43,557 nt of DNA, from assembly GCA_016195245.1 (NCBI GenBank), contig JACQAC010000177.1, positions 1-43,557 on the forward strand, read 5' to 3'. Under the pieces are notes generated by a model. The model did not search any database and was not told the origin of the DNA. It was given only the letters and a program-made list of their open reading frames with translations. This document shows, in pieces, positions 4,787 to 37,713 of the stretch (the stretch's first letter is position 1; the number at the start of each line of letters is the position of its first letter). The DNA comes from Pseudomonadota bacterium. GTDB lineage: Bacteria; Pseudomonadota; Alphaproteobacteria; Caulobacterales; Aquidulcibacteraceae. A program made the translations under genes and the position numbers.

Positions 4787-5422
4787 CTACCAGCGTAGTA
4801 GTTTCGAACCAACAATCGCGCCGATAGCAGCGCAGATGGCGATGCCGACGACGTACCAGGTCGTCACGAACGCCACCGAATCCACCGGGCAATACATGGC
4901 GTAGGCCATCGCGCCCAGACCGCCGGAGAGCGCGCCGATGGCTGCGCCCGAGAGAGTGAGGCGCGTCGGCGCAAGCGAGCGTGCTAGCCACACCATCAAT
5001 GCAGCGGCGGGCGCCGCAAAGATTGGGATCAGCACGATGCACCACGGGAAGCCGCCGCCCATCCAGGAGCGCAGCCGCAGTCCGCTGGGCATTCCCATCA
5101 GCGCAATCGCGGTGGCCAGAATGCTGACTCCGACGAAAAGCAGCACGGCAGCCACACGCCAGCCGAGCGGCGAGCCCGGCCGCATCAAGCGCATCGCCAG
5201 CGGCAGAACGCTGGCTGCCGCCGTGGCTGAGAAGGCAGCCTTCAGAAGCACCGCCCACGTCGCGGTTCCGATATCGGGCCTCATCCCCATGAAGGTGAGC
5301 ACGAGCGCCACCGCGATCGCCAAGCCAGCGAGCAGCGTCAGCATCGTGCGCATGCGCCAGCGTGGACGCTCCGCGGGCTCGATATTCTTGGCGAGCATGT
5401 CGATGAGGTCGTCGGTCTTCAT
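4787..5422 (-). CDS. nrsF: NrsF-like (DUF1109) membrane anti-sigma factor
   Basis: The 211-residue product has a polar N-terminal 25 residues followed by six predicted membrane helices (about 27-45, 54-76, 88-108, 128-146, 158-176 and 186-205), the pattern of DUF1109. In Caulobacter crescentus NrsF holds the ECF sigma factor SigF at the membrane and responds to metal stress through conserved cysteines. Here Cys128 (in PWC) and Cys178 (in MYC) sit at matching-looking membrane edges, and a third, Cys197, is in the last helix. Its ATG overlaps the sigma gene stop by four bases (ATGA), as expected for a sigma/anti-sigma pair. Function is inferred from family and context. Confidence 0.88.
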   Translation of the reverse strand: MKTDDLIDMLAKNIEPAERPRWRMRTMLTLLAGLAIAVALVLTFMGMRPDIGTATWAVLLKAAFSATAAASVLPLAMRLMRPGSPLGWRVAAVLLFVGVSILATAIALMGMPSGLRLRSWMGGGFPWCIVLIPIFAAPAAALMVWLARSLAPTRLTLSGAAIGALSGGLGAMAYAMYCPVDSVAFVTTWYVVGIAICAAIGAIVGSKLLRW

Positions 5423-5964
5423 GCCGCGCTCTCCTCTGCCATCAGTTTCATGAGCGTCTTCATGCCGCGATGGATGGAAACCTTGATGTCGGAAACACCA
5501 TAGCCGGTGAGCCTGGAGGCTTCCTCGACGCTGTGCTCCTGCAGCTTCACCAGTTCGATGGCGCGCCGTTGCTTCTCGGGAAGCTTCGCCAGCAGGCGCG
5601 CGACATCGCGTTTGGCATCGCCAGCTTCGAACGCGGGATCGGCATCGCCGATTTCGAGGTCGTCTATGGCGGAGTGATCGCCGCGCCGTTTCTTCCGGCG
5701 GAGCAGGTCAATCAGGCGGTAGCGCGCGATGGCATACATCCAAGCTGTCAGAGGTAGGTTTGGGTCGTACGTGTCGCGGCGAGTGTGCAACGCCACCAAT
5801 GTCTCCTGGACCAAATCCTCCGCATCCTCCCGTGCGCCCCGCAAACGATTGCGAAAATAGGGGCGCAGAAGGGCGGCCGCTTCCGTCAGGAACTTGCGGT
5901 GCGCAGCCTCTTCGCCGGCAAGGCCTTTGAGCAGCAAAGCGCGAAGTGCGGCTTCGTCGGCCAT
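5419..5964 (-). CDS. sigF: ECF RNA polymerase sigma factor, SigF-like
   Basis: The 181-residue protein has a sigma-70 region 2 (AEDLVQETLVALH near 48-60 and LTAWMYAIARYRLIDLLRR near 72-90) and a region 4 helix-turn-helix (LPEKQRRAIELVKLQ through SDIKVSIHRGMKTL, about 128-171), with no region 1 or 3, which is the ECF layout. Pairing with an overlapping nrsF gene points to the Caulobacter SigF group. A GTAACC-N16-CGTA element directly upstream (5982-6007) matches the known SigF-type promoter, implying autoregulation. The leader would be only about ten bases, with GAG (5970-5968) serving as a short Shine-Dalgarno sequence. Confidence 0.9.
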   Translation of the reverse strand: MADEAALRALLLKGLAGEEAAHRKFLTEAAALLRPYFRNRLRGAREDAEDLVQETLVALHTRRDTYDPNLPLTAWMYAIARYRLIDLLRRKKRRGDHSAIDDLEIGDADPAFEAGDAKRDVARLLAKLPEKQRRAIELVKLQEHSVEEASRLTGYGVSDIKVSIHRGMKTLMKLMAEESAA

Positions 5965-5981
5965 GATCTCGTTGAAGTTCC

Positions 5982-6007
5982 TACGGCGGCGAAGCCGGGC
6001 GGGTTAC
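5982..6007 (-). promoter_or_regulatory. Predicted SigF-type autoregulatory promoter
   Basis: On the minus strand GTAACC (6007-6002) is separated by exactly 16 bases from CGTA (5985-5982), close to the GTAACC-N16-CGAA motif reported for Caulobacter SigF. The TAA inside the -35 element is the stop codon of the upstream pheA gene. Transcription would start about ten bases before the sigF ATG. No other GTAACC in the window was found with a matching -10. Confidence 0.65.
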
Positions 6008-6852
6008 ATCCGTCGCGCAGCGCGTCGGAACGCATCTGCGGGATAGACCCCGAGGATGGTGAGCGAGCTTGAGAAGAAGCGCAACTCATCCAGCGCGAGC
6101 TGTACGCGTTGTTCTTCGGTGTGCCCCTCGATCTCGGCGAAGAACATGGCCGCCTCGAAGGAGCCACCCTCGATATAGGATTCCAGCTTCGTGATATTGA
6201 CGCCATTGGTCGCGAAGCCGCCGAGCGACTTGTAAAGCGCCGCCGGTACGTTGCGGACACGGAAGACGAAGCTGATGACGCACGGTCCGTTATCCGGCGC
6301 AGCGTTCTCTGGTTCGCGCGCGAACACCAGAAAACGTGTGGTGTTGTGATCGGCGTCGGCGATGTCGGCTCTAAGTGTTGTCAGGCCGTAGATTTCGCCC
6401 GCCAACGAAGAGGCCAACGCGCCGACGGCGGGATCGCCTAGCTCCGCTATCTCGCGCGCCGCGCCTGCGGTATCGCCCGATTGCACCGCGGCGACTCCGA
6501 GTTCGCGTAGCAGTCTGCGGCATTGGCCCAGCGCATGCGGATGCGAGCGCACCTCGCGTAGACCCTCAAGCGTCGCGCCTTTCACGCCAAGCAATTGATG
6601 ACGGATTGGCTCGAAGCGCTCGCCGACGATGAAGAGACCAGACTCAGGAATGAGGTGATGCACGTCAGCTACACGGCCGGCGAGCGAATTCTCGACCGGA
6701 ATCATCGCATAGCGAGCCTGGCCTTCGCGCACGGCGGCGAAAGCGTCCTCGAAGCTCGCACACGGCCGTGGCTGAAGCGCTGGGAAGGCCGCGCGCGCGG
6801 CGATGTCCGAATTGGCGCCGGGCTCACCCTGGAAGGCGATGCAATCGTTCAT
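6004..6852 (-). CDS. pheA: Prephenate dehydratase
   Basis: The enzyme converts prephenate to phenylpyruvate in phenylalanine synthesis. The 282-residue product is monofunctional, without a chorismate mutase domain. Visible motifs are FQGEPGANSD at the start, PVENSLAGRV near 52-61, the catalytic TTRF near 171-174, and a C-terminal ACT domain from about 192 (GGFATNGVNITKLES) that would bind phenylalanine for feedback inhibition; the usual ESRP is ESYI here. The stop codon is embedded in the sigF -35 box, so the sigma gene is closely packed behind it. It is divergent from the esterase gene, 48 bases away. Confidence 0.95.
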   Translation of the reverse strand: MNDCIAFQGEPGANSDIAARAAFPALQPRPCASFEDAFAAVREGQARYAMIPVENSLAGRVADVHHLIPESGLFIVGERFEPIRHQLLGVKGATLEGLREVRSHPHALGQCRRLLRELGVAAVQSGDTAGAAREIAELGDPAVGALASSLAGEIYGLTTLRADIADADHNTTRFLVFAREPENAAPDNGPCVISFVFRVRNVPAALYKSLGGFATNGVNITKLESYIEGGSFEAAMFFAEIEGHTEEQRVQLALDELRFFSSSLTILGVYPADAFRRAARRM

Positions 6853-35850: not shown

Positions 35851-37713
35851 ATGCAGCGTAAACTCACCGTCATCCTCTCGGCCGACATCGTCGGCTATAG
35901 CGCGTTAATGGAGCGAGACGAGAGCGGCACGCTGGCGCGGTTGAAGGAAAATCGAAAATCGCTGTTCGATCCACGCGTCGCCTCTCAAGGGGGACGTACG
36001 TTCAAGGTGATGGGCGACGGCGTGCTGGTGGAGCTCCCTAGCGCGAGCTCCGCCGTGACGTGCGCGCTTGATATCCAGGATGCGATGGAAGTGGCGGAAG
36101 CGCATCGCCCTGAGACCGACAGGCTTCGTTATCGGATCGGCATCAATCTCGGCGACGTAATCGTTGAGGGCGACGACATGTACGGCGAGGGCGTCAATGT
36201 TGCGGCCCGCCTGCAGGCGTTGGCGGAGGCCGGCGGCATTGCTGTATCTCGCAATGTTCGGGATCAGGTGGCGGGCAAGGTGGCGGCGGAGTTCGACGAT
36301 CTGGGTCCGCAGACAGTGAAGAACATCGAGACTCCGGTGCATGTCTTCGCGGTGCGGCCAAAGACTCTTGGCGTAACAACGGCGGCGGCGGACAAGCAGC
36401 AAAAAATGTCAATCTGTGTTCTGCCTTTCGTCAACATGAGCGGCGACAGCGAACAGGAATACTTCTCCGACGGCATCAGCGAGGACATCATCACCGACCT
36501 TTCGAAGGTGTCGGCGCTTTGGGTGGCGGCTCGCAATACGAGTTTCACGTTCAAGGGCAAACCGGTCGACGTGCAGCAAGTGACGCGCAATCTGAAGGTC
36601 AGCCATGTCCTGGAAGGCAGCGTGCGCAAAGCGCGTGGGCGCGTGCGCATCACGGCGCAATTGATCGACTCCACGGGCGGCCATGTCTGGGCTGAACGGT
36701 GGGACCGTGATCTGAACGATATTTTCGCGCTGCAGGATGAAATTTCCGAAGCGATCGTGAAGGCTCTGAAGCTAAAGCTCCTGCCTGAAGAAAAGCGGGC
36801 GATCGAGCGGCGCGGCACAAGCAACGCCGAAGCTTATGAGCTCTTCCTGCTGGCTCGCCAGTTCGAGCGCACCGGCAGCGAACGAATGAAGCCATTGATT
36901 GTGCGCATCTGCGAGCGGGCGCTGGAATTGGATCCGTCCTTCGCACGCAGCTGGGCGCTGATGTCGATGGCGAAAGCAGAGTTGTCGCAGCGCGGCATAA
37001 GCGGCTTCACCATGAATGATGCGCAAGAGGCGGCGGAGCGCGCGGTGAGCCTGGCGCCCGATCTGGCGGAAGGGTACGCGGCCTTGGCGGAAGCGCTTGG
37101 GCGCGGTCCGGAGATGAATCTTGCGGAGGGCGAAGCGGCGATCGAGACGGCCTTGAAGCTCGACCCACAATGTTACGATGCGCACGTTTTCGCTGGTTAC
37201 ATCGCGCTGGGCCAGCGACGCTATCACGACAGTCTGCGCCACCTTGAAACCGCTATTGCACTTGATGCGGACGCCTATCGGCCTGCCGGCATGGTGGTGC
37301 AAGTGTACGAGGCGTTGGGCGATAGGGCGGGCGCGCTTGCGGCGGCGCGCCGCTTGCGCGAGCGCTGCGAGCGACTGTTGCGCCTTGAACCCGATCACAG
37401 CGGCGCCTTGGGCTTTTTCGTCAATGCTCTGGCTGACCTTGGCGAAGTGGATCGCGCCCGGGAATGGACCAAACGCGCAGTGCTGTTCGACCCCGACAAC
37501 ATGCGCCTGCATTACAATCTCGCTTGTGGGATGGTGAAGGTGGATGCTGACTTCGCGTGCGAACTTCTGGAAAGAATCCTGCCGCGGATGACGCTCGGTT
37601 GGCTCAGATGGATGGATATAGATAACAGCCTCGATCCGATCCGGACCTATCCTCGCTTCAAAGCGATCTACGCGGACGTCCAGACGCGTTTGGCTGCTGA
37701 AACGGAGCGCTAG
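35851..37713 (+). CDS. Class III nucleotide cyclase fused to a TolB-like domain and TPRs
   Basis: The 620-residue protein has three parts. Residues 1-170 are a class III adenylate/guanylate cyclase domain keeping the metal Asp12 (SADIVGYS) and Asp56 (MGDG), a Lys52 for base recognition, and Asn116/Arg120 in GEGVNVAAR, so it appears active. Residues 185-300 are a TolB/FlgO-like domain (VLPFVNMSGDSEQEYFSDG, then SHVLEGSVRK). About 310-620 are TPR repeats. No membrane segment is seen. An in-frame TTG at 35842 could be used instead. It would make cyclic AMP or GMP in response to protein binding; the signal is unknown. Confidence 0.9.
   Translation: MQRKLTVILSADIVGYSALMERDESGTLARLKENRKSLFDPRVASQGGRTFKVMGDGVLVELPSASSAVTCALDIQDAMEVAEAHRPETDRLRYRIGINLGDVIVEGDDMYGEGVNVAARLQALAEAGGIAVSRNVRDQVAGKVAAEFDDLGPQTVKNIETPVHVFAVRPKTLGVTTAAADKQQKMSICVLPFVNMSGDSEQEYFSDGISEDIITDLSKVSALWVAARNTSFTFKGKPVDVQQVTRNLKVSHVLEGSVRKARGRVRITAQLIDSTGGHVWAERWDRDLNDIFALQDEISEAIVKALKLKLLPEEKRAIERRGTSNAEAYELFLLARQFERTGSERMKPLIVRICERALELDPSFARSWALMSMAKAELSQRGISGFTMNDAQEAAERAVSLAPDLAEGYAALAEALGRGPEMNLAEGEAAIETALKLDPQCYDAHVFAGYIALGQRRYHDSLRHLETAIALDADAYRPAGMVVQVYEALGDRAGALAAARRLRERCERLLRLEPDHSGALGFFVNALADLGEVDRAREWTKRAVLFDPDNMRLHYNLACGMVKVDADFACELLERILPRMTLGWLRWMDIDNSLDPIRTYPRFKAIYADVQTRLAAETER

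What the first reader, a model, noticed from the sequence alone, without database searches (positions are those of the whole stretch)
5982..6007. SigF autoregulatory promoter built over the pheA stop codon
GTAACC-N16-CGTA lies directly before the ECF sigma gene, matching the known SigF promoter of Caulobacter except for one -10 base. The -35 element contains the TAA of pheA, so the stop codon and the -35 box cannot change independently. The gap is only 39 bases, and the predicted leader is about ten bases.
Basis: partly seen in the sequence, partly recalled or inferred. Interest (0 to 1): 0.6.

Follow-up and report, generated by a model that had tools for sequence, protein, structure and literature searches.

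The report
SigF promoter sharing a stop codon
A stress-response sigma factor gene is preceded by what looks like the promoter that this type of sigma factor recognises, and three letters of that promoter also serve as the stop codon of the gene in front; the promoter is of a known kind, but in some related bacteria unrelated genes end on the same three letters.

Summary
On the minus strand GTAACC (6007-6002), 16 bases and CGTA (5985-5982) precede an ECF sigma gene, with the TAA of pheA (6006-6004) inside the -35. nrsF follows, as in ECF16 (SigF/EcfF) systems. All 26 genomes of the genus with a readable sigF upstream (own included) have GTAAC[C/T]-N16-CGTA, so the 'one wrong -10 base' is the clade's rule. 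The element also precedes msrA in 20 of 27 scored loci with at most one mismatch (shuffles expect 0.63). I file it as an ECF16 promoter, most likely autoregulatory: ordinary.

The claim that stop codon and -35 cannot change independently is half right. Where pheA stops elsewhere the -35 stays, and pheA ends on TAA in 3 of 17 loci (16 of 16 when overlapped). One relative stops pheA inside the -10. Less ordinary: other genes lying before sigF in relatives (three ParE toxins, a GNAT, a secreted-type protein, a thiolase in another family) also end on that TAA. Chance compaction or a real 'shared stop' tendency; I cannot separate these. No expression data for this organism were available.

The parts
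6002..6007 (-). -35 element GTAACC of the sigF-nrsF promoter; contains the pheA stop
   Evidence: GTAAC[C/T] in 26 of 26 readable sigF upstreams of the genus
6004..6006 (-). TAA stop codon of pheA, inside the -35
5982..5985 (-). -10 element CGTA
5986..6001 (-). 16-nt spacer; length conserved in the genus, sequence not
5965..5981 (-). 17 nt between -10 and start codon; would hold the start site and a leader of about 10 nt (inferred)
   Evidence: no transcription start data
5419..5964 (-). sigF-like ECF sigma factor, 181 aa (ECF16 type by its NrsF partner and promoter)
   Evidence: PF04542, PF08281; NF009191 above its cut-off
4787..5422 (-). nrsF anti-sigma factor, 211 aa, with Cys128 and Cys178
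   Evidence: PF06532, 154 bits; for the cysteines; NCBIfam NF042994 matched below its cut-off (100.5 against 300 bits)
6004..6852 (-). pheA, prephenate dehydratase, 282 aa
   Evidence: PF00800; NF008866 above its cut-off

Best explanation
An ECF16 (SigF/EcfF-type) promoter that drives its own sigF-nrsF operon. NrsF holds the sigma factor at the membrane; stress acting on its cysteines releases it; the sigma then transcribes sigF-nrsF and, in this genus, probably msrA. The pheA stop lies in the -35 because pheA is packed directly against the promoter; promoter function keeps GTAAC, and so pheA's stop is TAA. Shown here: the element, its conservation, the NrsF partner with two cysteines, the msrA sites, the one-way dependence. 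Inferred from studied relatives: release mechanism, autoregulation, start site, msrA control.
For: GTAAC[C/T]-N16-CGTA precedes sigF in 26 of 26 genomes of the genus with readable upstream, own included (25; G021); in the wider set 102 of 119 distinct sigma loci carry GTAACC-N15-17-CG[A/T]A within one mismatch. NrsF follows, with Cys128 and Cys178, spaced by 50 like C131/C181 of C. crescentus and C129/C179 of OsrA (passages of PMC3511200, and PMC3420878); no alignment of these was made. msrA: exact element in 13 of 27 scored loci, at most one mismatch in 20 of 27, shuffle expectation 0.02 and 0.63; both msrA genes of the window's genome carry it, one with N16, one with N17. Two of the three congeners without sigF (G014, G022) lack it at the msrA scored (L250, L247). 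B. japonicum ecfF is autoregulated from such a promoter and its regulon includes methionine sulfoxide reductases (PMC3420878); Brucella BcrS/AbcS controls Msr-type genes (PMC8315932, passages). pheA stop TAA in 16 of 16 overlapped against 3 of 17 other loci: Fisher p about 1e-6, genomes treated as independent, counts entered by hand.
Against: No transcript data. C. crescentus sigF is not strongly autoregulated under metal stress, and its msrA homologues showed no change in the sigF microarrays (PMC3511200), although PMC8315932 lists SigF of C. crescentus among ECF16 regulons with Msr genes. Seven of 27 scored msrA loci lack a site within one mismatch, five of them in genomes that have sigF (L242, L251, L258, L259, L260); three more loci (L261-L263) could not be scored. 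The element is not enriched genome-wide. Seventeen of 119 sigma loci lack it within one mismatch, among them G028's divergent copy of the same genus (L111). The NCBIfam NrsF cut-off is not met.
Confidence: 0.92

Rival explanations
1. sigF-nrsF is expressed mainly by read-through from pheA; the GTAACC-N16-CGTA element is minor or is used by another sigma factor.
For: Same strand, 39-nt gap, and no terminator-like site listed in the gap. C. crescentus sigF has a second, unknown regulator acting within -37 to +37 (PMC3511200).
Against: The element stays in the 10 of 26 genomes of the genus where I found no gene ending in it, several of them with a divergent gene in front. The same element precedes msrA.
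Confidence: 0.06
2. The recurrent ending of different upstream genes on the -35 TAA is not chance but selected or mechanistically favoured (a shared stop-promoter seam). This is compatible with the best explanation.
For: In the genus 16 of 26 sigF loci have a codirectional gene ending exactly there: pheA 11, ParE 3, GNAT 1, a 208-aa secreted-type protein 1; a thiolase does so in another family with a CGAA promoter (L177). On the sigma-NrsF tree the non-pheA carriers are scattered. By gene kinds, binomial with 17 allowed positions: 5 of 10, 1.4e-4; with the ParE counted as one kind, 4 of 9, 1.2e-3; leaving out pheA too, 3 of 8, 9e-3.
Against: Counts are post hoc, classes hand-made, numbers small; three of the kinds counted as ending elsewhere (L054, L055, L047) have no Pfam confirmation (for the last two; L054 not run). 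The 208-aa gene ends there in one genome and not in another, and was left out of the binomial. pheA itself ends elsewhere in five loci with nothing recognised between (L032, L125, L128, L129, L132). Of 19 msrA sites none has a convincing upstream gene ending on the TAA (open frames of 232 aa in L235 and 60 aa in L241 untested; six of the sites read GCAAC and have no TAA). Deletion up to an inviolable promoter predicts much the same.
Confidence: 0.3
3. The match is a chance similarity in a GC-rich junction.
For: Genome-wide the element is no commoner than its reversed control.
Against: 26 of 26 conservation with variable spacer sequence.
Confidence: 0.01

Closest known systems
Caulobacter crescentus sigF-nrsF (CC3253-CC3252) and its SigF promoter
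   Same: ECF16 sigma plus NrsF with two cysteines 50 residues apart; GTAACC-N16 promoter before sigF (PMC3511200, passages).
   Different: -10 is CGAA there, CGTA here; C. crescentus msrA homologues did not change in the sigF microarrays, while msrA carries the element here. DUF2282, which I recall as a marker of its SigF-controlled operons, was not found in this genome (81% complete) and is in 4 of 30 genomes of the genus.
Bradyrhizobium japonicum ecfF-osrA
   Same: Autoregulated ECF16 operon; GTAAC(g,a)-N14-15-(c,t)CG(t,a) promoter; methionine sulfoxide reductases in the regulon (PMC3420878, passages).
   Different: Motif written with other edges and spacing; a stop-codon overlap is not mentioned in the passages I saw.
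Brucella melitensis bcrS-abcS
   Same: ECF16 pair with Msr-type targets; TGTAAC -35 (PMC8315932, passages).
   Different: Target is an adjacent MsrQP-type operon; -10 GCGAAA.

Membership tests
ECF16 / SigF-NrsF system | ECF sigma with sigma-70 regions 2 and 4 | tested here: met
ECF16 / SigF-NrsF system | adjacent DUF1109/NrsF anti-sigma gene | tested here: met
   PF06532 154 bits; but NCBIfam equivalog NF042994 below its cut-off
ECF16 / SigF-NrsF system | two conserved NrsF cysteines | tested here: met
   Cys128 and Cys178 (a third at 197); judged by position and spacing, not by alignment
ECF16 / SigF-NrsF system | tGTAACc-N16-CGAA-like promoter before the operon | tested here: met
   -10 is CGTA, within the CG(t,a) given for EcfF
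ECF16 / SigF-NrsF system | placement in the ECF16 group on a tree with other ECF groups | not tested
   no reference ECF tree was built
Autoregulatory promoter | transcription of sigF depends on SigF | not testable with these tools
   needs expression data

The most novel reading that the evidence does not exclude
The -35 box of this promoter acts as a reusable stop codon: whichever gene comes to lie in front of sigF tends to lose its own stop and spacer and to end on the TAA of GTAACC, so the promoter fixes the 3' end of its neighbours. G021 (a 208-aa-type protein gene with its own TAG 18 nt before the -35) and G017 (a homologue, 48% identical, ending on the -35) show both states.
Probability: 0.3. 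Interest if true: 0.5.

Novelty: new member of a known kind. Interest (0 to 1): 0.3.

Why it matters
The promoter extends a known system to a genus known here mostly from metagenome assemblies and predicts its targets (sigF-nrsF and msrA). The junction is a natural series of one promoter behind many different genes; it separates promoter constraint from stop-codon constraint and gives a testable case of a promoter element shaping the end of neighbouring genes.

Tried and rejected
Bufferin-type targets: DUF2282 not found in the window's genome, so msrA was examined instead. Whole-genome motif enrichment: none; among the ten genomes the sigF site is the only exact N16 copy in G009 and G011. Long open frames ending on the TAA in L002, L047, L054, L120, L153, L160-L165, L173, L174, L176, L180, L182, L187, L189 were set aside as probably non-coding by inspection (codon-position GC, antisense genes, length) and not counted; this is a judgement, not a test. 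Upstream ORFs of msrA sites: no clear overlap. A sigma residue that follows CGTA/CGAA: residue 83, R in 43 of 52 CGTA and K in 44 of 44 CGAA loci, not corrected for relatedness. T against C at the second -35 base: 23 family loci with no gene ending in the -35 all T, msrA sites 14 T and 6 C, p 0.006 (counts by hand); five further family loci of another genus (L136, L178, L179, L185, L186) were not entered and are T as well. Literature: searches (all six terms required, none found; 2 papers; 5 papers) asked about a stop codon/-35 overlap or pheA beside a sigma gene; no listed paper was opened, so I make no claim that the overlap is unpublished. Three papers were seen as passages only (PMC3511200, PMC3420878, PMC8315932). 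The second window hit (37174-37200) was dismissed on reading.

Rows dropped: one search kept 119 of 199 loci (sigma hit of at least 90 bits, at least 60 nt upstream, duplicates by junction removed); 17 of the 119 lack the element within one mismatch, among them G028's divergent copy L111 and second distant copies in G008, G009, G018 (L156, L147, L152). One search scored 27 of 30 msrA loci.

Full report
What is there. Read on the minus strand, pheA ends ATG-TAA at 6006-6004, and that TAA is the centre of GTAACC (6007-6002); 16 nt on stands CGTA (5985-5982), and 17 nt after it the ATG of a 181-aa ECF sigma factor (5964-5419), whose stop overlaps the start of a 211-aa NrsF (5422-4787).

What it is. 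NrsF is found by Pfam (PF06532, 154 bits), with Cys128 and Cys178; their spacing is that of C131/C181 in C. crescentus and C129/C179 in OsrA, but I made no alignment. The stricter NCBIfam NrsF model is matched below its cut-off. Of 30 genomes of the genus, own included, 27 have a sigma hit at E 1e-35 or better. In 26 of these the upstream could be read: 25 and G021. The 27th, G028, has a divergent copy (50% identity) with 118 nt of upstream and no such element. All 26 have GTAACC (24) or GTAACT (2), a spacer of 16 and CGTA, while the spacer letters vary. Over all 119 distinct sigma loci kept, 102 carry the element within one mismatch and 17 do not. Of 96 loci with the element, CGTA or CGAA and a full-length sigma, 52 have CGTA and 44 CGAA. 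So CGTA is the rule in this clade, not an error.

Targets. In ten congeners the exact N16 element occurs one to four times per genome, fewer than its reversed control in nine of ten. Some of these sites, and one in the window's own genome, lie before msrA. Of 30 msrA loci fetched 27 could be scored: 13 have GTAAC[C/T]-N16-CGTA exactly and 20 at most one mismatch within 400 nt, against 0.02 and 0.63 expected from shuffled upstreams. Both msrA genes of the window's genome carry it (N16; N17). Two of the three congeners without sigF were scored and lack it; five scored loci from genomes with sigF also lack it. Most genomes have two msrA genes and mostly only the better-scoring one was fetched. 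Msr genes are in the ECF16 regulons of B. japonicum and Brucella (PMC3420878, PMC8315932, passages). For C. crescentus the two papers differ: no msrA change in the sigF microarrays (PMC3511200), but PMC8315932 lists its SigF among the Msr-controlling ones.

The shared stop codon. Of 33 family loci with pheA in front of sigF, pheA stops on the -35 TAA in 16: 11 in the genus and 5 of 8 outside it. In the other 17 it stops elsewhere, with TGA 9, TAG 5, TAA 3. Overlapped, it is TAA by necessity (16 of 16; Fisher about 1e-6, taking genomes as independent). The -35 reads GTAACC in all 23 family loci entered in which I found no gene ending in it, whereas msrA sites read GCAAC in 6 of 20 (p 0.006, counts by hand). 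So sigF's own promoter is held by promoter function and not by the stop codon. In L128 pheA runs through the -35 and ends on TAG formed by the -10 and the next base. The two features are therefore separable.

A recurrent pattern. In five further genomes of the genus a different gene stands between pheA and sigF and ends on the same TAA: ParE toxins in G011, G023 and G012, a GNAT acetyltransferase in G026 (Pfam) and a 208-aa protein without Pfam match in G017. Their ends lie at or near those of homologues: of four GNAT homologues elsewhere three end at the aligned residue and one 12 residues later; of 23 ParE rows, these three included, 18 end within 3 residues of the aligned part and 5 run 7 to 14 residues on. 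In another family a thiolase ends there too, full length against PDB thiolases. On the sigma-NrsF tree (no support values; G001 only by its partial sigma) the carriers are scattered, for example G011 beside G001 and G023 beside G018, both with pheA. The ParE copies of G011 and G023 share the last residues NDET and may descend from one insertion, so I count them once. The 208-aa gene recurs in front of sigF in G021 (48% identity), where it ends on its own TAG 18 nt before the -35; where G021 falls on the tree was not determined. By gene kinds (pheA, ParE of G011/G023, ParE of G012, GNAT, thiolase against L054, SDR, 2OG oxygenase, L055, L047) five of ten end exactly there: binomial 1.4e-4 with 17 allowed positions; 1.2e-3 with ParE as one kind; 9e-3 without pheA as well. 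The classes were made after seeing the data, and three of the five others lack Pfam confirmation (L054 not run), so this is a lead.

Verdict. A conserved ECF16 promoter, most likely autoregulatory: known kind, new member. The overlap with pheA is a real but one-way dependence. Whether the repeated use of the -35 as a stop codon is more than compaction is open.

Noticed in passing
L121 (G017:C179), about 1.35 kb before the intact sigF: A truncated sigF copy (first 49 residues or so) fused to a PheA-tail-like end, preceded by GCAACC-N16-CGTA: trace of a duplication at this junction.
   Followed up: partly
SigF residue 83 (ARY[R/K]LID), window protein 5419-5964: R in 43 of 52 CGTA-type loci, K in 44 of 44 CGAA-type loci; could bear on -10 recognition or be relatedness only.
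   Followed up: no
L002, L041, L042, L044, L046, L120, upstream of sigF: A divergent gene (about 290-350 aa, reading LL[I/V]DFDNV near its start) begins close before the sigF promoter.
   Followed up: no
G000:C211:1100-1125 and G013:C228:379-404 (L204, L221): An identical 26-base GTAACC-N16-CGTA string in the window's genome and its nearest relative, apparently inside a gene on the other strand.
   Followed up: partly
L147, L152, L156 (G009, G018, G008): Second, distant SigF-like copies without this promoter element.
   Followed up: no
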